A stretch of DNA of 63,048 nucleotides, from IMG/VR virus record IMGVR_UViG_3300032322_002946, positions 1 through 63,048 of that record; one strand, 5' to 3'. This DNA comes from a virus. Position numbers and translations under genes: made by a program. Shown here piece by piece: positions 15,262-62,921 of this stretch (the first letter of the stretch is position 1; every line of letters begins with the position of its first letter). Below the pieces are notes generated by a model. That model was not told the DNA's origin. It ran no database searches and saw only the letters and a list, made by a program, of their open reading frames with translations.

Positions 15262-15537
15262 TTAAAATGTTTGATAAGTCTCTTCAATTTTTTTAGCCAA
15301 TGAATAATCTAAATCAGTAATTCTACCAACATCATGTGTAATTAATTTGAGTTTCAATGTATTATATTTCCATTCGATGTCTGGATGATGATTCATAATT
15401 TGACAAATCGGTGTAATTCTTGTAATAAACTGACCAACTTCAATAAAATCATTAAATTGATATGTTCTTTCTAAAAATTGACCTGCATCAGACCATTCAC
15501 TTTCAATAGATTCGTTAAATTTTTTAATTCTTTTCAT
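15262..15537 (-). CDS. Pterin-4a-carbinolamine dehydratase with capsid-targeting-like N-terminus
   Basis: This 91-residue protein is a recognisable DCoH/PhhB enzyme, with FIEVGQFITR, the NHHPDI motif (His50-His51-Pro52) and THDVGRITDLD (His68-Asp69). The catalytic His pair and the second His are all present. It normally recycles pterin cofactor for aromatic amino acid hydroxylases. It carries the window's shared leader (MKRIKKFNES), here ending F-N-E rather than (I/L)-x-E. It is the last gene of a five-gene minus-strand operon (15262-18941). A packaged metabolic enzyme is surprising. Confidence 0.85.
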   Translation of the reverse strand: MKRIKKFNESIESEWSDAGQFLERTYQFNDFIEVGQFITRITPICQIMNHHPDIEWKYNTLKLKLITHDVGRITDLDYSLAKKIEETYQTF

Positions 15538-15569: not shown

Positions 15570-16463
15570 CTAGAAGTTCAATAAAATTTTTAATGTATAA
15601 TCATATATTTGTGTATCCTCACTAAATTGTCTGTCAAATCTAGCTTTGTCCCAAATTACTTCCTCATAGTCTAAATAAGGAAGAATTGATTCTAACACTT
15701 CATCTAAATTACTTTCTAAATCAGATAGTTTCATAGTGCCAGTTTGGATAGAATCAGTGTAACCACCAATATCAATTGTTATACAAGGCTTATACATTTG
15801 TAAAATTTTATCAACAGAATAATCTCTTTTTTCATCTATGTCATATTCAGATACCCTTACTTTTCTGCCTTTGTAATCATCTGTGTCAAATTCTGCTCCA
15901 GCAAAAACACCCATTTCTTTATAATCATCAATGTTGAAGTTTTGACATTGCCATTTTTTGTCAGTTACATAATAGCTTTCGTCACTCTGTCTAAGAAAAT
16001 AATCAGGATATCCACCAATTCTTAGAGTTGGATAGACTATTTCCTTCATAATGTGAATAATAATTCTTGTTTTGTCACGCTCATCTATGTCTCTAACTGA
16101 AATTAATCCATTGAACTTATGTTTGTTGGCTTTATTGATTTTTTTATAATCACCATAAGCAACACTATACATCACCCATTTATTCTTTTCTTTTGGGACT
16201 TTATCATAGACATCCAACATTCTATCTTCGATGTATTCAATATCTACTTTTTTTAAGGCGGTTATTATTCTGTTTGTTAGTTCTAATATTTTTTCAAAGT
16301 AACCCTCTCCAATGAAATGGTCTGACCATTTTTTTAGTGAAACTAAATTAACATTAAGTATTTGTGTCCTACTCCATTCCCAGTTTTTTAGGTCTTCAAT
16401 CCAATCACCGATACCATAATTCTGAGATGATTCAAATATTTGATATTTTTTTAAGTATTTCAT
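15570..16463 (-). CDS. Hypothetical protein with capsid-targeting-like N-terminus
   Basis: The product is 297 residues and starts MKYLKKYQIFESS, with an exact I-F-E cleavage-type site at residues 9-11. I do not recognise the remainder. It is rich in aromatic and charged residues, has no signal peptide or membrane segment, and ends with an acidic helix-strand region (LSDLESNLDEVLESILPYLD). It overlaps the next gene upstream by 4 bases (ATGA type) in the operon 15262-18941. Confidence 0.75.
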   Translation of the reverse strand: MKYLKKYQIFESSQNYGIGDWIEDLKNWEWSRTQILNVNLVSLKKWSDHFIGEGYFEKILELTNRIITALKKVDIEYIEDRMLDVYDKVPKEKNKWVMYSVAYGDYKKINKANKHKFNGLISVRDIDERDKTRIIIHIMKEIVYPTLRIGGYPDYFLRQSDESYYVTDKKWQCQNFNIDDYKEMGVFAGAEFDTDDYKGRKVRVSEYDIDEKRDYSVDKILQMYKPCITIDIGGYTDSIQTGTMKLSDLESNLDEVLESILPYLDYEEVIWDKARFDRQFSEDTQIYDYTLKILLNF

Positions 16464-17434
16464 TCTATCTCTAATTCATTTAATATACTATCTAAAAGAT
16501 TAGTCTTTATTAGTATAACTTCATCTTCACACCAAGACTCTAACGAACTCTTTGTATAGTCTTCATCATCCGGGTCTAACTGAGAATATAAATCCATAGT
16601 TGAGGTAACATCACCCAACTTAAAGTTATTAAAAGAAGGATCTAAAAGTTGATTTAAGTTTTCTAAAAGATTCATATTTGGATTCCACATAATTCTTCCT
16701 CTTACCTTGAAGTATTTTTGAATCATTCTATCATCCATTTCAACACTTTCTAAAAATGATTTTAGTTTTTCCCAATTAGTATCAACACCTTCTGGTTCAA
16801 ATTTTTGAATCCATTTTCCTGGAATAGTCATTTCTTTAGAAAAAGTTTTACCATAAGAATCAGTACCTCTGCTCGTAAATTGAAATGGTGTTGGATCAAA
16901 TACATTTTGCACGGTTTTTAAGTCTCTCATTAGACTTGTCATATAGTAAGAAATACTTGGTCTTGAAGATTTACTTCTAAAAGCTGATCTATTAGGAAGT
17001 TTTCCAAAACATTCCCAAAAGTCACTTCTATCTCCAGTTGCTACTTTTGTAGTATCATAAGGTATTACAACATAATCAACTGCTTTTCCACCTTTAATAA
17101 AACCTGCACCATGTGAAAGTGCTCTTCCTGCCGAAGCAAAAACTAAAGATTTGTTTCTACGGGGCCAAACTTTCCACGAATCTAAGTTAGATATAAGTAA
17201 ATTATGAAAGTTAGTTACAGAGTAAGGAGCAATTCTATCAGAAGTTGATAACTTAGGATTAACTAAAACAAAGTCCCCACGGTCTTCATCTTTTCTAAAA
17301 ATTAAACAATCTTCAGTATAGTCCTTTCCCCAACTAAGAAATTTCTTACATTTTGTCGTAAGTATCTCAATTACTTCATCTTTTGTCAAAGTAGTAGTAT
17401 TTAGACTTTCATTTATGCTCTTTAAATGTTTCAT
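16460..17434 (-). CDS. Hypothetical protein with capsid-targeting-like N-terminus, paralogue of the 37728 gene
   Basis: This 324-residue protein starts MKHLKSINESL (I-N-E at 7-9). Residues about 40-160 parallel the 37728 gene: GDFVLVNPKL against GDYVFVDPKL, SNLDSWKVWPRR against SNLPSWKDYPRY, VDYVVIPYDT against IYEVIPFDD, and FWECFG against IWESFG. An early FR (LIFRK here, LFRG there) followed by a Ser-rich segment is faintly like an ADP-ribosyltransferase, but no full R-S-E triad is evident. T4 packages the ADP-ribosyltransferase Alt, so the idea is worth testing. Confidence 0.7.
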   Translation of the reverse strand: MKHLKSINESLNTTTLTKDEVIEILTTKCKKFLSWGKDYTEDCLIFRKDEDRGDFVLVNPKLSTSDRIAPYSVTNFHNLLISNLDSWKVWPRRNKSLVFASAGRALSHGAGFIKGGKAVDYVVIPYDTTKVATGDRSDFWECFGKLPNRSAFRSKSSRPSISYYMTSLMRDLKTVQNVFDPTPFQFTSRGTDSYGKTFSKEMTIPGKWIQKFEPEGVDTNWEKLKSFLESVEMDDRMIQKYFKVRGRIMWNPNMNLLENLNQLLDPSFNNFKLGDVTSTMDLYSQLDPDDEDYTKSSLESWCEDEVILIKTNLLDSILNELEIE

Positions 17435-17976
17435 TACTTAGTATATTCAAAATTTAATTTTTCACCATTTGATAATGAATAAGTTATCTTATCAACATTC
17501 TTAACTTCATACTTATAATCCGGTTTAATATATTTCTTACCTGTGCCACTTTTAACATAAGCAACTGTTATATGTGGTTTGTAATCAGGATATTCATTTG
17601 AGTTAGGAAACTTAGATAATTCATCGTGTAAATATTGTAAAGCACCATCCGGTATTACATTAAACTTAACAACGTCATAGTCTTTATTTTCAAAAATATC
17701 AATACCATCAACTTTTATATTTATATCAGCATCAAAATTCTCAAATACGGATTTAACTTGTTCCTCTGTTACACCTTCATGTAAACCATATAATATAGTA
17801 ACGTGTGGATTTTTTTGAATTCCGTGAGTATTATCTCCAGGTTCTTCATAAACATCATCAGGATTGATATAACTTGTAATTTCATTCCAATTACTAACAG
17901 GAACTTCAACCATAACACATCCGTATTCGTATCCGGATGATTCTTTTATAAATTGTATATAGTTTTTGATTATCAT
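17434..17976 (-). CDS. 2H phosphoesterase (LigT-like) with capsid-targeting-like N-terminus
   Basis: This 180-residue protein has the two His-x-Thr motifs of the 2H family, NPHVTILYG (His58) and KPHITVAYV (His135), about 77 residues apart. The family includes 2',3'-cyclic phosphodiesterases and the phage anti-CBASS enzyme Acb1, which cleaves cyclic oligonucleotide signals. The leader MIIKNYIQFIKESS carries an exact I-K-E site. The stop of this gene and the ATG of the next share the sequence ATGA. Substrate cannot be decided from sequence; Acb1-like activity is a guess from context. Confidence 0.8.
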   Translation of the reverse strand: MIIKNYIQFIKESSGYEYGCVMVEVPVSNWNEITSYINPDDVYEEPGDNTHGIQKNPHVTILYGLHEGVTEEQVKSVFENFDADINIKVDGIDIFENKDYDVVKFNVIPDGALQYLHDELSKFPNSNEYPDYKPHITVAYVKSGTGKKYIKPDYKYEVKNVDKITYSLSNGEKLNFEYTK

Positions 17977-18941
17977 ATTCTACCTTGTAATATTATTCTC
18001 ATCTCTCCGCCTCTGTTATTAAATGAAAAATTAAAATCTAAACCTGATTCACTTTGTAGTCTTTTAACAGATGTTAAAAAATCTTCAGCTCTATCATATA
18101 TTGGACCATCTGTTATATCACCAAATTCTTTGTTTGTTAAATCTTTAGTGTCCCAAATAATTTCTCCATCTGATGTTATTCTTCCGGTCCAGTCAATATA
18201 TTCTTTTCTTAATTCAGCAGGAACATATTCATCATTTTCTTTTAACATTATACAATTAAAATGAGGTGGATACTCTAGTGAAAATCTTTTTATAGATTGG
18301 TATGGGGCAAAAGAATTAGGATTTTCAGAACCAGATGACCAATACCACCCCTCATCTTCAAATTCTATGAAACATTCTTTTATGGTATCCATAAACTGAT
18401 TCCATATTTGATTCATCATATCAACGTTTTCAAAAGACTTTTCTATTTTGTATTTAGGATTCTTTGCCCATATTTCCCAGTTTCCTTCTTCAGTCGCATT
18501 AAAATAGACCTCCTCGGCTGATATTATTTCTTCTTTATCTTCATCATCAATTTCATGAAAATAAGCAACATCAAAAGGATTATAAGTGATTCTAACCATA
18601 TTCTCTGTATTGTTATTTGTTGGAATAACAATTCCTGAAACACCAGCGATTAAAGATCTTTTATCTGTTTTTTTAATAGTTTCAGCGCCCGCTTCAGATG
18701 TTTGAAAGAAAATTGGATCAGAAATTCTGACTTCATTTGTATATCTACCAGCATATCCTTCTTTTCTTCCATTTATGCTAGAGTCATAGATGCCAATTAG
18801 TCCGTTCCAACCATTTCTTTTGTGAGTTCTATTAGTATGAAACCATAGATGTTGACCAACTAAATCATTAGCATCAACATAACCTTCGCAATCTTTAAGT
18901 GAATCATAATAGACTTCCTCATACTTTTTGAGATATTTCAT
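17973..18941 (-). CDS. Hypothetical protein with weak capsid-targeting-like N-terminus
   Basis: This 322-residue protein starts MKYLKKYEEVYYDS, matching the shared leader in the first seven residues but without an (I/L)-x-E site. A middle block (LWFHTNRTHKRNGWNGLIGI, later RISDPIFFQTSEAGAET) has a His-rich loop and paired strands. I could not name the family. It is the first gene of the operon running down to 15262, just downstream of a TTTAATATATA box with only 5 bases between box and start. Confidence 0.65.
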   Translation of the reverse strand: MKYLKKYEEVYYDSLKDCEGYVDANDLVGQHLWFHTNRTHKRNGWNGLIGIYDSSINGRKEGYAGRYTNEVRISDPIFFQTSEAGAETIKKTDKRSLIAGVSGIVIPTNNNTENMVRITYNPFDVAYFHEIDDEDKEEIISAEEVYFNATEEGNWEIWAKNPKYKIEKSFENVDMMNQIWNQFMDTIKECFIEFEDEGWYWSSGSENPNSFAPYQSIKRFSLEYPPHFNCIMLKENDEYVPAELRKEYIDWTGRITSDGEIIWDTKDLTNKEFGDITDGPIYDRAEDFLTSVKRLQSESGLDFNFSFNNRGGEMRIILQGRI

Positions 18942-18946
18942 AAGAT

Positions 18947-18957
18947 TATATATTAAA
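18947..18957 (-). promoter_or_regulatory. Late-type TTTAATATATA box
   Basis: Minus-strand TTTAATATATA ends 5 bases before the ATG of the first gene of the 15262-18941 operon. Confidence 0.6.
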
Positions 18958-34380: not shown

Positions 34381-35703
34381 GTGAAAATATTTAACTACAT
34401 AGAATTCATCAAAGAAAATACTTCATCTGTGAATAAAATACCTACTTATAGTGAAGCCGTCGAAATGTGCTCTGGAGATGAAGCACCATTCTACGAATCA
34501 AAATACGAAGTAGAGGGATATCCTGTGTCTGTTTTTAACTATCGACTTGCTCAGTATAAAGATTTTGATACGCCTGTCCCATCAAAACCAGAACTAAAAG
34601 GTTTTGAAATGAGAGGTCTAACTTTTGTATTTAATAAAGATGGAACTCTTTACAATAGGTATGTACTTCTTGAAAAGTTCTTTAACTTAAATCAAGTTCC
34701 TACTTCAATGTACTCTGTTGTTAAAGACTATAAAATCAGATATGTTAATAACAAAGAAGATGGTTCAATCGCAACATTTATAAAACTACCTAATAATAAA
34801 ATAGTTGGTAAATCAAAAATGGGATTTGATAATGAACAAGCAACTGGTATTAACAAAATCTATAAGACTAATAAGGATGTTAAATCTTTTGTTGATTGGT
34901 GTTTAAATAACGATATCGTTCCTATATTTGAATATGTCGCTCCACATAATAGAATTGTTTTAAGATACTCAAAAGAAGAACTAATACTTCTTCGTTTAAG
35001 AGATAATAAGACTGGAAAGCACATTGATATTAAAGAACATTTAGACAAAATTGGTTCAATCAAAATTGCCCCATTTGAGGATGATGATACATTAGATGAT
35101 TTGATTGAAAAATCTAAATCAGAAGTGGATAAAGAAGGATGGATTGTTCAATTTGATAATGATCATATGCTTAAAATAAAGACAGATTGGTATTTTCAAA
35201 GACACGGTCTTTTGACTAATGATATTTACGGAGAGCATATTATAATTGGATATATCTTAGATGATTTAATTGATGATATCTTAGGTCAAATACCAGAAGA
35301 TGAAGTAGAGGCTCATTTAAGAATCAATAAAATAATCTCAATTGTCAAAAGAACATTAAGAGAAAAGGTAGATGAAATCAATTCGGCGTACAAAGAATAT
35401 CTACAATCTGGTTTATCTAAAAAGGAGTATGCAATAAAGAATAGAACAAATCCTACTTTTCCATTTGTAATGAATTTGGAAAAAGCAGAAAACTTAAAAA
35501 AGATGTCAAGAGAAGAAATACTTGATATCTATGATGATATTGAATCTTATGAAAGATCTCTTAAAAGATGTGAACCATTTGATATGGCTAAAGAGTGGCT
35601 AAGAGATAAAACTAAAAGACTAGAAATAGCTAGAGAATGGTTGAAGAGTAAAGACTCAACACTTTTCTTTCAAGAGCCAGAAGAGTCAGAAGACGATAAC
35701 TAA
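34381..35703 (+). CDS. rnlA: T4 RNA ligase 1-like enzyme with capsid-targeting-like N-terminus
   Basis: This 440-residue protein starts with GTG and a leader MKIFNYIEFIKENT (exact I-K-E site). The Rnl1 ligase motifs are all present: KEDGS (Lys125 nucleophile), FEYVAP (motif III, Glu184 region), EGWIVQ (motif IV) and LKIKTDW (motif V). T4 Rnl1 rejoins tRNA cut by host anticodon nucleases such as PrrC. A leader on an RNA repair enzyme would let it act at the instant of infection, which I infer. It is later than Rnl1's usual 374 residues, with extra C-terminal helices. Confidence 0.9.
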   Translation: MKIFNYIEFIKENTSSVNKIPTYSEAVEMCSGDEAPFYESKYEVEGYPVSVFNYRLAQYKDFDTPVPSKPELKGFEMRGLTFVFNKDGTLYNRYVLLEKFFNLNQVPTSMYSVVKDYKIRYVNNKEDGSIATFIKLPNNKIVGKSKMGFDNEQATGINKIYKTNKDVKSFVDWCLNNDIVPIFEYVAPHNRIVLRYSKEELILLRLRDNKTGKHIDIKEHLDKIGSIKIAPFEDDDTLDDLIEKSKSEVDKEGWIVQFDNDHMLKIKTDWYFQRHGLLTNDIYGEHIIIGYILDDLIDDILGQIPEDEVEAHLRINKIISIVKRTLREKVDEINSAYKEYLQSGLSKKEYAIKNRTNPTFPFVMNLEKAENLKKMSREEILDIYDDIESYERSLKRCEPFDMAKEWLRDKTKRLEIAREWLKSKDSTLFFQEPEESEDDN

Positions 35704-35741: not shown

Positions 35742-36143
35742 ATGAGACATCTAAAATCATATAAATTATTCGAGTCTAGCTGGTATGATATGAAAGAATA
35801 TATGAATGTTCTTGGAGACCTATCTTTAAGTTTATGGGATAAAGATTTCAATGTTCAGATTGCAGATGAAATTATAAGTAGAGTAAATCAATGTATAGTT
35901 GTAAATATAGTTAAAAGAGGATCTAATGCTAAATTTACTTATCCAGAAATAAAAGAAGAACTATTAGATATGGTTCATTATATGGATTTACAAGGTTGGG
36001 AAATATTAAATATGGAATATACACATATTGCTTCTGGACCTCTTTATTGTAAATTAGATGGTGATAAATTAGTATCAGTTATGTCAGAAGAAGAAATAGA
36101 CTACCAATTTCACCAACTTATTGTAAAATTTAAACAAAGATGA
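35742..36143 (+). CDS. Hypothetical protein with capsid-targeting-like N-terminus, repeat-domain family
   Basis: This 133-residue protein starts MRHLKSYKLFESS (exact L-F-E). The remaining sequence (YMNVLGDLSLSLWDKDFNVQ, IVVNIVKRG, PEIKEELLDMVHYMDLQGW) follows the same helix-strand-helix order as the repeat domain of the genes at 30161 and 30589. It is the first gene of a four-gene plus-strand operon of leader-bearing proteins (35742-38495), preceded by TTATATATAC and ATG a few bases later. Confidence 0.7.
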   Translation: MRHLKSYKLFESSWYDMKEYMNVLGDLSLSLWDKDFNVQIADEIISRVNQCIVVNIVKRGSNAKFTYPEIKEELLDMVHYMDLQGWEILNMEYTHIASGPLYCKLDGDKLVSVMSEEEIDYQFHQLIVKFKQR

Positions 36144-36949
36144 AATATTTAAAAACATATAAATTATTTGAGGCTTATGTAGATAATCCAATCTTCATAA
36201 GATTTAGTCATGTTGATTTACTAAATGGTGAGTCAGAAATTGAATTTACACCAGGTGAAAGAAGAATGATTGGTCCCAAATTATTTAATGACATTTTAGT
36301 TAATATTGGATTTCCAGATAAAAGTAAATGTGTTCATTTTATGGACGAAGTATCTTATGATAACAATCCAAATTTAACTTCACTTTACGGAAAAAATCTT
36401 TATAATATAAAAGTCGATGATAACTCATTATTGGGTTGGTCTTTTGTAATGCCAATAAATGACTGGTTTTTTAGAGCTTATCAATTTTATAATAATGTGG
36501 AAAAAAATGATAAAGTAAAGTCATTATTAAGTCCAGAATTTTTTGAAATAGAACCTGAAAATGAAGTTTTTGAAACTAGTCCAGAAGCAGGTAAAGAAAC
36601 AGTAAATATTTTAATCAAAGACAATATGATTGGTTTTGGTAAATTATCTGACTTAATGAATTCACCTTACTGGGGGAAACTACCCCTATTTGCATGGACA
36701 AATGATAGTGTTAAAGTTTCTCTGAAGCCAAAAGAAGCAAAACAACCAAAAGAGGCAAAGGCTTATAAAAAACAAGCACTTTTAACACCAGATGATTTTG
36801 ATAGTTTAGGTGTTAGTAGAAGTAAAATAGGTCTTTTCTATAATTCTCCAGAAGGTAGAAAAATGTTGAGAATACAAGAGCATTTGCCTTATGACATTAA
36901 AAGAGAAGAGGCTTTGAGATTATTAAAAGTATGGTCTGAAAATTTATGA
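36140..36949 (+). CDS. Hypothetical protein with capsid-targeting-like N-terminus
   Basis: This 269-residue protein has leader MKYLKTYKLFEAY with an exact L-F-E site. The first 130 residues are aromatic and beta-rich. The C-terminal 60 residues are basic and Lys-rich (KPKEAKQPKEAKAYKKQALL) and end in an amphipathic helix, so it may bind DNA or protein. I recognise no family. It overlaps both neighbours by 4 bases. Confidence 0.65.
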   Translation: MKYLKTYKLFEAYVDNPIFIRFSHVDLLNGESEIEFTPGERRMIGPKLFNDILVNIGFPDKSKCVHFMDEVSYDNNPNLTSLYGKNLYNIKVDDNSLLGWSFVMPINDWFFRAYQFYNNVEKNDKVKSLLSPEFFEIEPENEVFETSPEAGKETVNILIKDNMIGFGKLSDLMNSPYWGKLPLFAWTNDSVKVSLKPKEAKQPKEAKAYKKQALLTPDDFDSLGVSRSKIGLFYNSPEGRKMLRIQEHLPYDIKREEALRLLKVWSENL

Positions 36950-37728
36950 GATATTTAAAGACATATAAATTATTTGAATCCAAAAATTTAGATTGTTTAG
37001 CAAATCAATTCTTAGATGAATATTCCTATCAATATGATTTGAGATTAGGTAAGTCTTTTGATAAAGAAAAGGCTAATTGTTCTTGGTTTACAAAAGAATT
37101 TTATAACTGGGCTAAATCAAAATCAATAGATGTCGAAATAGTTTATTTTGATTCAGATGTAGAAGCTCATATTGCTCCTATGATTGATGGTCAAATTATT
37201 GATTTCTCAGTCAAACAATTTACTAAGAATCGTGATGATGATTATTTAATTCTTACACCTAAAGACTATGTTAAATGGGGATATCCAAAATATGAAATTC
37301 TTTCTGAGTTTCCAGATTGGGCCACGGTAAAAGAGGCAGATGAAAGGGTAAAGTTTATCAATTGGTCTGATTTCAAAAAGACCGAGATGTATGATTGTTT
37401 AACAAAAGCACATTTTTATTATGATAGTGAAGAAGACAAAGAAGAATGGGGAGTATCAGACATAAACCAATATGGTATTGAAGGTGGCTCATACTTTTGC
37501 ACAACTGATAATTGTATAACACATTACAGAGACAATCCAGGTTATGATGGAGAGTATGACTTTGAATTAGATGATATGACAATTATAGCTTTATCTAACG
37601 ATGAATATATAATGCAAGATGAAAAAGTCAAAGAAATGATATTACAAAAAGCGGATGGGTTTTATTGTCCGGAGTATGATACTTATGGATTGGTTGTTTG
37701 GAATAGAAATAAGATTAAAATGATATAA
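36946..37728 (+). CDS. Papain-like cysteine-protease-like protein with capsid-targeting-like N-terminus
   Basis: This 260-residue protein has leader MRYLKTYKLFESK (exact L-F-E). ANCSWFTKEFYNWA (Cys45), EAHIAPMIDG (His75) and GQIIDFSVK (Asp86) are spaced as Cys-His-Asp in papain-fold peptidases and transglutaminases. A separate second half follows, ending in GLVVWNRNKIKMI. Overall catalysis is plausible but not proved. It is the third gene of the 35742-38495 operon. Confidence 0.55.
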   Translation: MRYLKTYKLFESKNLDCLANQFLDEYSYQYDLRLGKSFDKEKANCSWFTKEFYNWAKSKSIDVEIVYFDSDVEAHIAPMIDGQIIDFSVKQFTKNRDDDYLILTPKDYVKWGYPKYEILSEFPDWATVKEADERVKFINWSDFKKTEMYDCLTKAHFYYDSEEDKEEWGVSDINQYGIEGGSYFCTTDNCITHYRDNPGYDGEYDFELDDMTIIALSNDEYIMQDEKVKEMILQKADGFYCPEYDTYGLVVWNRNKIKMI

Positions 37729-38495
37729 TGAAATATTTAAAATCATATAAGATATTTGAAACTTACAATAGATTTGGTTCAAGAACTATTACTGAATCTG
37801 AATTTGATAAAATCAGAAAAGAGAATTGTAAAAACTGGACTAAGTGTGAGACTGAATTATTTAGAGGTATGTCAGATTTAGGAGACTATGTTTTTGTAGA
37901 TCCTAAACTGGGTGATTTCAGAAGTTCAATAGAAGATACAAATATACATTTAGAATTGATGTCCAATCTTCCGAGTTGGAAAGATTATCCTAGATATGAT
38001 AGATGTGTTATTGGTGGTTCTCCAGGAGCTGTTGGTTCTTATGGTGATGCTATTTATGAAGTGATACCATTTGATGATGTTAAAATTGGTGTTTGTCCTT
38101 ATCCAACTATTTGGGAGTCATTTGGAAATGATTTAATTAGTGACTGGGGTGGTGATATCTATTTAGTTGAGTATTTTTTAGGCTCTATTGGTTTAGATTC
38201 AGGTTGGATTCAAATTGGTGGTGAAACTCTTGAAAATAAATTAAAATCAATACAGGAATTTGATTTAGAAAAAGAAGAGGTAGATAATTTTATTATTGAA
38301 TGTGCTTTATTTCTTAAAAAGAAAAAAGAAGAAATAACTGGTAAAGATTGCTTTAATTTTATTAATGATTATCTTTTCAATCCTGTAATGAGGGGATTTA
38401 AGTTATTAAATTATGATGAGAATTTTAAGATAGAAAATCGAAGACAATTTTGGACAGAGGGACCAGTTTTACTTATCAAAGGTAAGTTATCTTAA
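37728..38495 (+). CDS. Hypothetical protein with capsid-targeting-like N-terminus, paralogue of the 16460 gene
   Basis: This 255-residue protein has leader MKYLKSYKIFETY (exact I-F-E). It shares a core with the 16460 gene (LFRGMSDLGDYVFVDPKL, SNLPSWKDYPRY, YEVIPFDD, IWESFGND). The LFRG opening faintly recalls an ADP-ribosyltransferase. It is the last gene of the operon and converges on the 38492 gene, with a 4-base overlap. Confidence 0.65.
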   Translation: MKYLKSYKIFETYNRFGSRTITESEFDKIRKENCKNWTKCETELFRGMSDLGDYVFVDPKLGDFRSSIEDTNIHLELMSNLPSWKDYPRYDRCVIGGSPGAVGSYGDAIYEVIPFDDVKIGVCPYPTIWESFGNDLISDWGGDIYLVEYFLGSIGLDSGWIQIGGETLENKLKSIQEFDLEKEEVDNFIIECALFLKKKKEEITGKDCFNFINDYLFNPVMRGFKLLNYDENFKIENRRQFWTEGPVLLIKGKLS

Positions 38496-61820: not shown

Positions 61821-62921
61821 ATGATAATAATGAGACAAGAACTATTTAATCTTATTGAAGGTAAATCTCCTGGATCAAGACCACTATATCTTGTTATCCG
61901 TGGTTCTCATGCATATGGAACTAATGTCCCAACTTCAGATATTGACTATGCTGGTGTTTTTATTCAATCACTTAGTGACATTTTAGGAAATTCTTACAAA
62001 GAACAAATCAATGATGATAATAATGATATTGTGATCTATGAAATTCGAAGATTTTTAGAACTATTACAAAGTAATAATCCAACCGTATTAGAACTCTTAA
62101 ATACCCCAGAAGATTGTGTTATTTATAAACATCCTATCTTTGATGAAGTTCTAAATAACAGAGATAAATTCATAACTAAAATCTGTGCTAAGTCTTTTGG
62201 TGGTTATGCTAAACAACAAATCTCAAAAGCAAAAGGCCAAGATAAAAAACAAAACTGGGAAAAGGATAGAGTTAGTAGAAAAACCCCAATCGATTTTTGT
62301 TATATTCACAAAGGTGAGTACTCTTACAACTTAAAAGAGTATTTAGAAAAACATAATATACCTCAACAACTTTGTGGTTTGTCAAAATCTCCTCATGGTA
62401 AAGATATCTATGCTCTTTTCTTTAGTGAAGAGTTTGTAAAATTTAAAGGTATTGAGTTTGAAAATTCTAACGATATTCGACTTAGTTCTATTCCAAAAGA
62501 TTTACCTGAGAGTTGTTTTATAGGTCATATCTCTTATAATAAAGATGGTTATTCACAACATTGTAAAGACTATTTATCTTATCAAACTTGGTTACAAGAA
62601 AGAAATGAGTCTCGTTGGGTTGATGTAAAATCTCACGGTCAAAAGATTGATGGTAAAAATATGATGCATTGTGTTAGATTAATGCAGATGGCTCGTGAAA
62701 TTGCCGAAGGTAAAGGAATTAATGTTCGTAGATTAAATGCTGATGAATTAATTTCAATCAGAAAAGGTGAAGTTGATTTACAAACTTTAATTAATAATGT
62801 TGAGTCAGAAATTGTAGAAATCGATAATCTATTCGATGCTTCTAACTTACCAGACAAAGTTGAACCTAACTTAATAAATGAGATTCTAATTTTTATCAGA
62901 AAAAATATTTATAATATATAA
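61821..62921 (+). CDS. RlaP-like nucleotidyltransferase
   Basis: This 366-residue protein has the polymerase-beta-type signature GSHAYGTNVPTSDIDYAG near residues 28-45, with Asp40 and Asp42 as metal ligands. The remainder is like RlaP/COG3541 nucleotidyltransferases, which are often found with RNA repair genes. It may add nucleotides to RNA ends. The first ATG is at 61821; the next in frame at 61830 is also possible. It is far from RNA ligase. Confidence 0.75.
   Translation: MIIMRQELFNLIEGKSPGSRPLYLVIRGSHAYGTNVPTSDIDYAGVFIQSLSDILGNSYKEQINDDNNDIVIYEIRRFLELLQSNNPTVLELLNTPEDCVIYKHPIFDEVLNNRDKFITKICAKSFGGYAKQQISKAKGQDKKQNWEKDRVSRKTPIDFCYIHKGEYSYNLKEYLEKHNIPQQLCGLSKSPHGKDIYALFFSEEFVKFKGIEFENSNDIRLSSIPKDLPESCFIGHISYNKDGYSQHCKDYLSYQTWLQERNESRWVDVKSHGQKIDGKNMMHCVRLMQMAREIAEGKGINVRRLNADELISIRKGEVDLQTLINNVESEIVEIDNLFDASNLPDKVEPNLINEILIFIRKNIYNI

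What the first reader, a model, noticed from the sequence alone, without database searches (positions are those of the whole stretch)
17434..17976. Leader-bearing 2H phosphoesterase, a candidate injected anti-CBASS enzyme
The 2H fold with two His-x-Thr motifs is that of Acb1, the T4 enzyme that degrades cyclic oligonucleotide alarm signals. Here it carries the I-K-E leader. An enzyme of this sort delivered with the DNA would act before any phage gene is expressed.
Basis: partly seen in the sequence, partly recalled or inferred. Interest (0 to 1): 0.75.

Follow-up and report, generated by a model that had tools for sequence, protein, structure and literature searches.

The report
Capsid-leader RNA-type 2H phosphoesterase
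A very large phage carries a phosphoesterase behind a short tag like the one T4 uses to load proteins into its head; the same tag sits on the phage's RNA-repair enzymes, so the enzyme is more likely an injected RNA-end repair tool than the proposed immune-signal destroyer, which is not excluded.

Summary
ORF 17434-17976 (-) encodes a 180-aa 2H phosphoesterase (HVT 58-60, HIT 135-137) behind a disordered leader ending in I-K-E. Huge phages (476-642 kb) carry 58-81% identical copies. The leader is real. N-terminal (L/I/F)xE leaders recur far above shuffled expectation in this window and its relatives. The relatives encode a T4-type S77 prohead protease and a gp23-type capsid protein whose propeptide ends in the same motif. 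Head targeting and injection are therefore well supported, though inferred.

The anti-CBASS reading is only partly supported. The protein passes Pfam's Acb1 cut-off, and E. coli RNA phosphodiesterase ThpR does not match that model. But it scores higher as generic 2'-5' RNA ligase superfamily, is structurally no closer to Acb1 than to Usb1, LigT or CPDase, and lacks Acb1's adenine contact and lid tryptophan. RNA context dominates. Relatives fuse it to a DEDDh exonuclease or a CCA-adding transferase. In this clade the exonuclease, CCA transferase and T4-type RNA ligase 1 (in this window, leader VKIFNYIEFIKE) carry the same leader, while every Rnl2-type ligase examined lacks it.

Best reading: one piece of an injected RNA 3'-end/tRNA repair kit (0.45). 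Cyclic-oligonucleotide degradation: 0.27. New variant of a known kind.

The parts
17434..17976 (-). 2H phosphoesterase gene, 180 aa
17941..17976 (-). N-terminal leader MIIKNYIQFIKE, predicted capsid-targeting propeptide with cleavage after E12
   Evidence: disordered in model; (L/I/F)xE conserved before the core; matches capsid-protein propeptide sites in relatives and T4 gp24/IPI/gp23
17797..17805 (-). first HxT motif, HVT (residues 58-60)
   Evidence: H58 and T60 invariant in 55 sequences
17566..17574 (-). second HxT motif, HIT (residues 135-137), in YPDYKPHIT
   Evidence: P134, H135, T137 invariant; F/Y129 in 54 of 55
18946..18957 (-). promoter-like box TTTAATATATAA just upstream of the operon head (18941) that includes the 2H gene
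   Evidence: a similar box precedes the 2H operon in most relatives examined
17973..18941 (-). operon head, start MKYLKKYEEV (leader without a clear site), Phage_L5_gp82-like domain; overlaps the 2H start by 4 bases
16460..17434 (-). leader-bearing gene of unknown function (MKHLKSINE|SLN), overlaps the 2H stop by 1 base
15570..16463 (-). leader-bearing gene of unknown function (MKYLKKYQIFE|SS)
15262..15537 (-). leader-bearing pterin-4a-carbinolamine dehydratase homologue (MKRIKKFNE|S)
   Evidence: PF01329 80.5 bits; leader
34381..35703 (+). T4-type RNA ligase 1 with the same type of leader (VKIFNYIEFIKE|N, GTG start)
   Evidence: PF09511 E 1.8e-18, phrog_562 E 2.6e-55; leader also on the orthologues of G002, G004, W01, W02
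61821..62921 (+). RlaP-type RNA-repair nucleotidyltransferase (context)
   Evidence: PF10127 73.7 bits

Best explanation
A catalytically intact 2H phosphoesterase of a T4-type huge phage, probably infecting Bacteroidota. It is made with a capsid-targeting leader, drawn into the prohead, trimmed after I-K-E by the S77 prohead protease, and ejected with the DNA. In the cell its main job is most likely on RNA 3' ends: opening 2',3'-cyclic phosphates left on tRNA or other RNA by host defence ribonucleases. It would be one of a set of co-packaged RNA 3'-end enzymes: the 2H enzyme, a DEDDh 3'-5' exonuclease, a CCA-adding nucleotidyltransferase and a T4 Rnl1-type ligase. Shown: ORF, predicted fold, intact HxT/HxT, leader statistics, shared cleavage-type motif, fusions and co-tagged enzymes. 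Inferred: packaging, cleavage, ejection, substrate.
For: Leader: recurs above chance, with synonymous codons varying among copies. Relatives encode an S77 protease and a gp23 with propeptide sites QINE|N, SINE|N, SLNE|S. T4 IPIII needs only its first 10 residues for packaging, and gp21 cuts after L/I-X-E (PMC9026906). RNA partners: 2H is fused to a DEDDh exonuclease in L002, L004, L007, L046, and the exonuclease is a nearby gene with its own leader in L005, L053, L056. 2H lies in the same protein as a PolyA_pol/CCA transferase in L063, L072, L095, L111. Stand-alone CCA transferases of G004, W01, W02 start MKLKRYNQFLE|S or similar, and the two tested show no HD domain; HD-bearing CCA enzymes remove 2',3'-cyclic phosphates at tRNA 3' ends (PMC10673834). 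Rnl1 carries the leader here and in four relatives; all Rnl2-type ligases read in G004, W01, W02 lack it. Most top PDB fold hits are RNA-acting 2H enzymes.
Against: No HAD-type PNKP was found in the close clade, so 5'-OH/3'-phosphate healing would need other enzymes; a leader-bearing P-loop kinase exists (L223). Iyer et al. 2017 (PMC5512222) never saw such phage 2H domains associated with RNA ligases. The exonuclease and the CCA transferase are not in this 63-kb fragment. Polyvalent fusions also include ART and GNAT domains, so fusion alone does not fix the substrate. The profile is nearer Acb1 than ThpR is.
Confidence: 0.45

Rival explanations
1. One reading: an injected Acb1-like nuclease that destroys CBASS cyclic oligonucleotides before any phage gene is expressed.
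For: PF23474 (Acb1) above cut-off at 30.8 bits and 52 of 55 family members match it, while E. coli ThpR and a P. horikoshii LigT fragment do not. T4 W74 and F107 base-stacking positions are aromatic here (F95 55/55; F/Y129 54/55). Profile-profile match to T4-like Acb1, hhalign 96.3%. Acb1 proteins with a leader exist: Morganella phage Mm5 MSKLIRFNQFINE|S and L182 MSFSDFLKE|T. Iyer et al. 2017 already suggested that phage 2H domains may degrade defence nucleotides.
Against: PF13563 scores higher (38.9 against 30.8 bits). TM to Acb1 0.45/0.56 against 0.65 for CPDase, 0.61 for Usb1 and 0.58/0.63 for BCSR5, which its depositors call Acb1. E141 and lid W147 have no counterpart in the alignment; the family has its own conserved KxGxGKKY loop. 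Cargo and fusion partners are RNA enzymes.
Confidence: 0.27
2. A ribonuclease or 3'-end trimmer of the Usb1 type, or a 2'-5' oligonucleotide or ADP-ribose cyclic phosphodiesterase, injected to act on host RNA or another signal.
For: Usb1 is the best PDB fold hit by E-value, plant Appr>p CPDase the best by TM-score. Iyer et al. 2017 favour Usb1-like RNase or 2-5A degradation for phage 2H domains. A 2H domain is fused to a phage portal in L125.
Against: No feature specific to Usb1 or 2',5'-PDE was tested or seen; sequence identity to Usb1 in the fold alignments is 7-11%.
Confidence: 0.15
3. The leader is not a capsid-targeting sequence (it is, for example, a compartment or expression tag), and the enzyme is an ordinary phage protein made during infection.
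For: Leaders are very numerous (about 11-18% of genes), more than the handful of T4 internal proteins; some 2H relatives lack a leader (L009, L011, L086); the gene lies beside replication genes such as gp32.
Against: The (I/L)xE|S/N motif equals the capsid-protein propeptide site of the same phages; leader genes are enriched for the TAATATATA box (odds ratio 3.0, p 2e-6); Rnl1 and CCA transferases of more distant phages start without the leader.
Confidence: 0.13

Closest known systems
T4 Acb1 (gp57B) and T4-like Acb1 proteins, PF23474
   Same: 2H fold, HxT/HxT tetrad, aromatic residues at the W74 and F107 positions, above the Pfam cut-off
   Different: no counterpart of E141 or lid W147; longer, with its own KxGxGKKY loop; T4 Acb1 has no capsid leader; different gene neighbourhood (gp32 side rather than gp57A/dNMP kinase)
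Phage 2H domains of polyvalent and solo proteins (Iyer et al. 2017, PMC5512222); Maribacter phage Molly/Colly 2'-5' RNA ligase superfamily protein
   Same: closest sequence and fold family outside the huge phages (Colly_1 TM 0.69/0.77); same domain appears in giant multidomain proteins predicted to be injected
   Different: here stand-alone behind a T4-style leader; fused or co-tagged with RNA 3'-end enzymes
LigT/ThpR RNA 2',3'-cyclic phosphodiesterases (PF02834, TIGR02258) and Usb1/CPDase
   Same: fold and catalytic motifs; among the best PDB fold hits
   Different: below the curated cut-offs of PF02834 (23.1 against 23.3) and TIGR02258 (28 against 65.7)
T4 internal proteins IPI-III with the capsid targeting sequence (PMC9026906, PMC3012670, PMC12373910)
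   Same: short N-terminal basic/aromatic leader ending in (L/I)xE, on unrelated proteins, in phages with an S77 protease
   Different: known T4 cargo is anti-restriction proteins; here the tagged cargo includes enzymes of RNA repair and is far more numerous
T4 tRNA repair (Pnkp and Rnl1)
   Same: Rnl1-type ligase present in the window
   Different: no PNKP HAD phosphatase found in the close clade; 2H could replace the cyclic-phosphate step; the ligase here has a capsid-type leader

Membership tests
Acb1 (PF23474) | HxT/HxT catalytic tetrad | tested here: met
   H58, T60, H135, T137 invariant in 55 sequences
Acb1 (PF23474) | score above the family's curated cut-off and best family of its kind | tested here: inconclusive
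   30.8 bits, cut-off 27, but 2_5_RNA_ligase2 scores 38.9
Acb1 (PF23474) | base-stacking aromatics Y12, W74, F107, W147 | tested here: inconclusive
   W74 and F107 positions aromatic (F95, Y129); Y12 perhaps Y18; W147 not matched (residue roles from PMC9117128)
Acb1 (PF23474) | E141 adenine contact | tested here: not met
   the position I align with it (168) is L here and mostly K/M/R in relatives; sequence alignment only
Acb1 (PF23474) | closer in fold to Acb1 than to other 2H enzymes | tested here: not met
   7t27 TM 0.45/0.56 against about 0.53-0.65 (query-normalised) for CPDase, Usb1, LigT
Acb1 (PF23474) | cleaves cyclic di- and trinucleotides and protects from CBASS | not testable with these tools
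   needs an enzyme assay and plaque assay
2'-5' RNA ligase superfamily (PF13563) | score above curated cut-off | tested here: met
   38.9 against 27 bits
LigT/ThpR RNA 2',3'-CPDase (TIGR02258, PF02834) | score above curated cut-off | tested here: not met
   28 against 65.7; 23.1 against 23.3
T4-type capsid-targeting leader | short N-terminal leader ending in (L/I)xE before a folded domain | tested here: met
   IKE at 10-12, leader disordered
T4-type capsid-targeting leader | phage has an S77 prohead protease and a capsid protein with the same cleavage motif | tested here: met
   protease and gp23 in huge relatives; propeptide site INE|N inferred from sequence. Not in the 63-kb window itself, which is a fragment
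T4-type capsid-targeting leader | protein is in the virion, trimmed, and ejected | not testable with these tools
   needs virion proteomics

The most novel reading that the evidence does not exclude
Huge T4-type phages load their capsids with dozens of leader-tagged proteins, including an RNA-repair kit (2H phosphoesterase, Rnl1 ligase, CCA-adding transferase, DEDDh exonuclease, P-loop kinase), so that host tRNA or RNA damage by abortive-infection nucleases is reversed before phage genes are expressed.
Probability: 0.38. Interest if true: 0.8.

Novelty: new variant of a known kind. Interest (0 to 1): 0.55.

Why it matters
Injected counter-defence proteins are known from T4 (anti-restriction) and predicted for polyvalent proteins, but I know of no case of RNA repair enzymes preloaded in the head (not found in the papers searched, which is not proof). 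The leader would let the injected protein set of uncultured huge phages be read from sequence and tested by virion proteomics. It also warns against annotating every phage 2H protein near Acb1 as anti-CBASS.

Tried and rejected
Acb1 orthology: rejected as a filing because the curated 2_5_RNA_ligase2 model scores higher, the fold is not closer to Acb1, and E141/W147 have no counterpart. ThpR/LigT orthology: below cut-offs. RtcB-linked repair: no RtcB in any record searched. PNKP-linked repair: HAD_PNKP only in the distant W03. Leader as shared DNA rather than protein motif: codons vary at leucine and lysine positions. tRNA genes nearby: none in the window. Confirmation that the TAATATATA box is a late promoter was inconclusive: of ten motif-bearing genes tested, one was a tail fibre, one a peptidase, one a homing-endonuclease-like gene, seven unknown. 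BCSR5 phosphodiesterase (9q2g/9q2y) has no paper in the library.

Full report
Observation. The ORF at 17434-17976 (-) is real: 180 aa, ATG start, with HVT at 58-60 and HIT at 135-137. It overlaps its neighbours by 4 bases upstream and 1 base downstream in a same-strand block. Pfam gives 2_5_RNA_ligase2 38.9 bits and Acb1 30.8 bits (both cut-offs 27), LigT_PEase 23.1 (cut-off 23.3). NCBIfam TIGR02258 gives 28 bits against a cut-off of 65.7. The window is a 63-kb IMG/VR virus record. It is evidently a piece of a huge phage: the nearest relatives are LR745206 (634,780 bp, 67% identity), LR756502 (642,428 bp, 58%) and IMG/VR contigs of up to 476 kb at 73-81%. More distant relatives include Maribacter phages (about 40%), which makes Bacteroidota hosts likely but not shown. 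A broader alignment search found 348 related stretches in viral contigs but only 8 in genome contigs, so the family is mainly viral.

Fold and catalytic state. The AlphaFold2 model built on 55 sequences has mean pLDDT 89.7 and a disordered leader. All four HxT residues are invariant. PDB fold hits are Usb1, archaeal LigT, YjcG, BCSR5 phosphodiesterase, LigT, CPDase and Acb1, all with modest TM-scores; CPDase (1jh7) has the highest TM (0.65) and Acb1 7t27 is 0.45/0.56.

Is it Acb1? Arguments for: 52 of 55 relatives match the Acb1 profile, whereas E. coli ThpR and a P. horikoshii LigT fragment do not; hhalign against seven T4-like Acb1s gives 96.3%; the positions of T4 W74 and F107, which stack on the bases (PMC9117128), are F95 (55/55) and F/Y129 (54/55). 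Arguments against: E141, which contacts adenine, and lid residue W147 have no counterpart in the alignment; the family has its own conserved loop KxGxGKKY after the second HxT. It is therefore an Acb1-neighbour family, not shown to be Acb1.

The leader. MIIKNYIQFIKE|SS resembles T4 gp24 MAKINELLRE|S, IPI ...ITE|A and gp23 FLTE|A (T4 sequences read). T4 gp21 cuts after L/I-X-E, and the first 10 residues of IPIII suffice for packaging (PMC9026906). The huge relatives have an S77 protease (below the curated cut-off in four of them, E 1e-4 to 4e-6, but close to the gp23 gene) and a gp23-type capsid protein. Its propeptide carries EYAEFHQINE|NAY, HSINE|NAY, QIHE|N or SLNE|S (cleavage inferred). Leader counts: window 16/87 against 1.7 from shuffles, relative G004 53/472 against 8.9, LR745206 regions 41/284, Molly_1 1/189 against 2.0. 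Codon choice varies within leaders, so selection is on the peptide. Leader genes are enriched for an upstream TAATATATA box (odds ratio 3.0, p 2e-6; 47 exact TAATATATAC copies in G004 against 5.1 expected). TTTAATATATAA lies directly before the operon head at 18941, and similar boxes precede the 2H operon in most relatives. That this is a late promoter is a guess.

RNA context. In L002, L004, L007 and L046 the 2H protein continues into a DEDDh exonuclease, with the junction keeping a leader-like site (ESLNE|NKMWYK, ESINE|N, GLNE|N). In L005, L053 and L056 the exonuclease is a separate nearby gene whose own leader ends in the same INE|N or LNE|N. In four giant phage proteins (L063, L072, L095, L111) the 2H domain is in the same chain as a PolyA_pol/CCA transferase, the next recognised domain after it in three, with ART or GNAT domains in some. 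The stand-alone CCA transferases of G004, LR745206 and LR756502 start with the leader; those of two more distant phages do not. The T4-type RNA ligase 1 has the leader in this window (34381-35703, VKIFNYIEFIKE|N) and in four relatives, but not in distant W04. All Rnl2-type ligases read in G004, LR745206 and LR756502 lack a leader. RtcB is absent from the records searched. The window also has an RlaP RNA-repair nucleotidyltransferase. CCA enzymes normally use an HD domain to clear 2',3'-cyclic phosphates at tRNA 3' ends (PMC10673834); Pfam finds no HD domain in the two phage CCA enzymes tested, which would leave that step to the 2H protein. This is inference.

Independent support for packaged Acb1s.

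Prior work. Iyer et al. 2017 (PMC5512222) predicted that polyvalent proteins with such domains are packaged and injected, and that phage 2H domains act as RNases, on 2-5A, or on defence nucleotides; the 2021 jumbo-phage survey (PMC7824862) assigns 2H enzymes to 2',3'-cyclic phosphate clearing and RNA repair. What is added here is the T4-style leader, its match to the capsid cleavage motif, and the set of RNA enzymes that share it.

Verdict. Observation confirmed; delivery likely but unproven; RNA 3'-end repair preferred (0.45) over anti-CBASS (0.27).

Noticed in passing
window 34381-35703 (+): T4-type RNA ligase 1 starts at GTG with the leader VKIFNYIEFIKE|N; orthologues in four relatives keep the leader, and a distant one (W04) lacks it.
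   Followed up: yes
window, upstream of 18941, 20268, 32785, 38776, 44603, 52562 (all -): A TTTAATATATA(A/C) or ATTAATATATAC box lies a few bases upstream of many start codons; it is about nine times over-represented in relative G004 and enriched before leader genes; possible phage-specific promoter.
   Followed up: partly
window 35742-38495 (+): Four tandem genes of unknown function each start with M(K/R)(Y/H)LK(T/S)YK(L/I)FE; probable expanded cargo cassette.
   Followed up: no
window 15262-15537 (-): A pterin-4a-carbinolamine dehydratase homologue carries the leader, an odd candidate for packaging.
   Followed up: no
window 61821-62921 (+): RlaP-type RNA-repair nucleotidyltransferase (PF10127, 73.7 bits).
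   Followed up: partly
L041 220-732; L182 2001-2453: T4-type Acb1 proteins that carry an N-terminal leader with a gp21-type site (Morganella phage vB_Mm5 and an IMG/VR contig).
   Followed up: partly
L125 3579-5537: In a Rhodococcus aetherivorans contig a 2H domain is fused to the C terminus of a phage portal protein.
   Followed up: no
L063, L072, L095, L111: Giant phage proteins (979-2520 aa) combine a CCA/PolyA_pol transferase and a 2H domain, some with ART-PolyVal or GNAT domains.
   Followed up: partly
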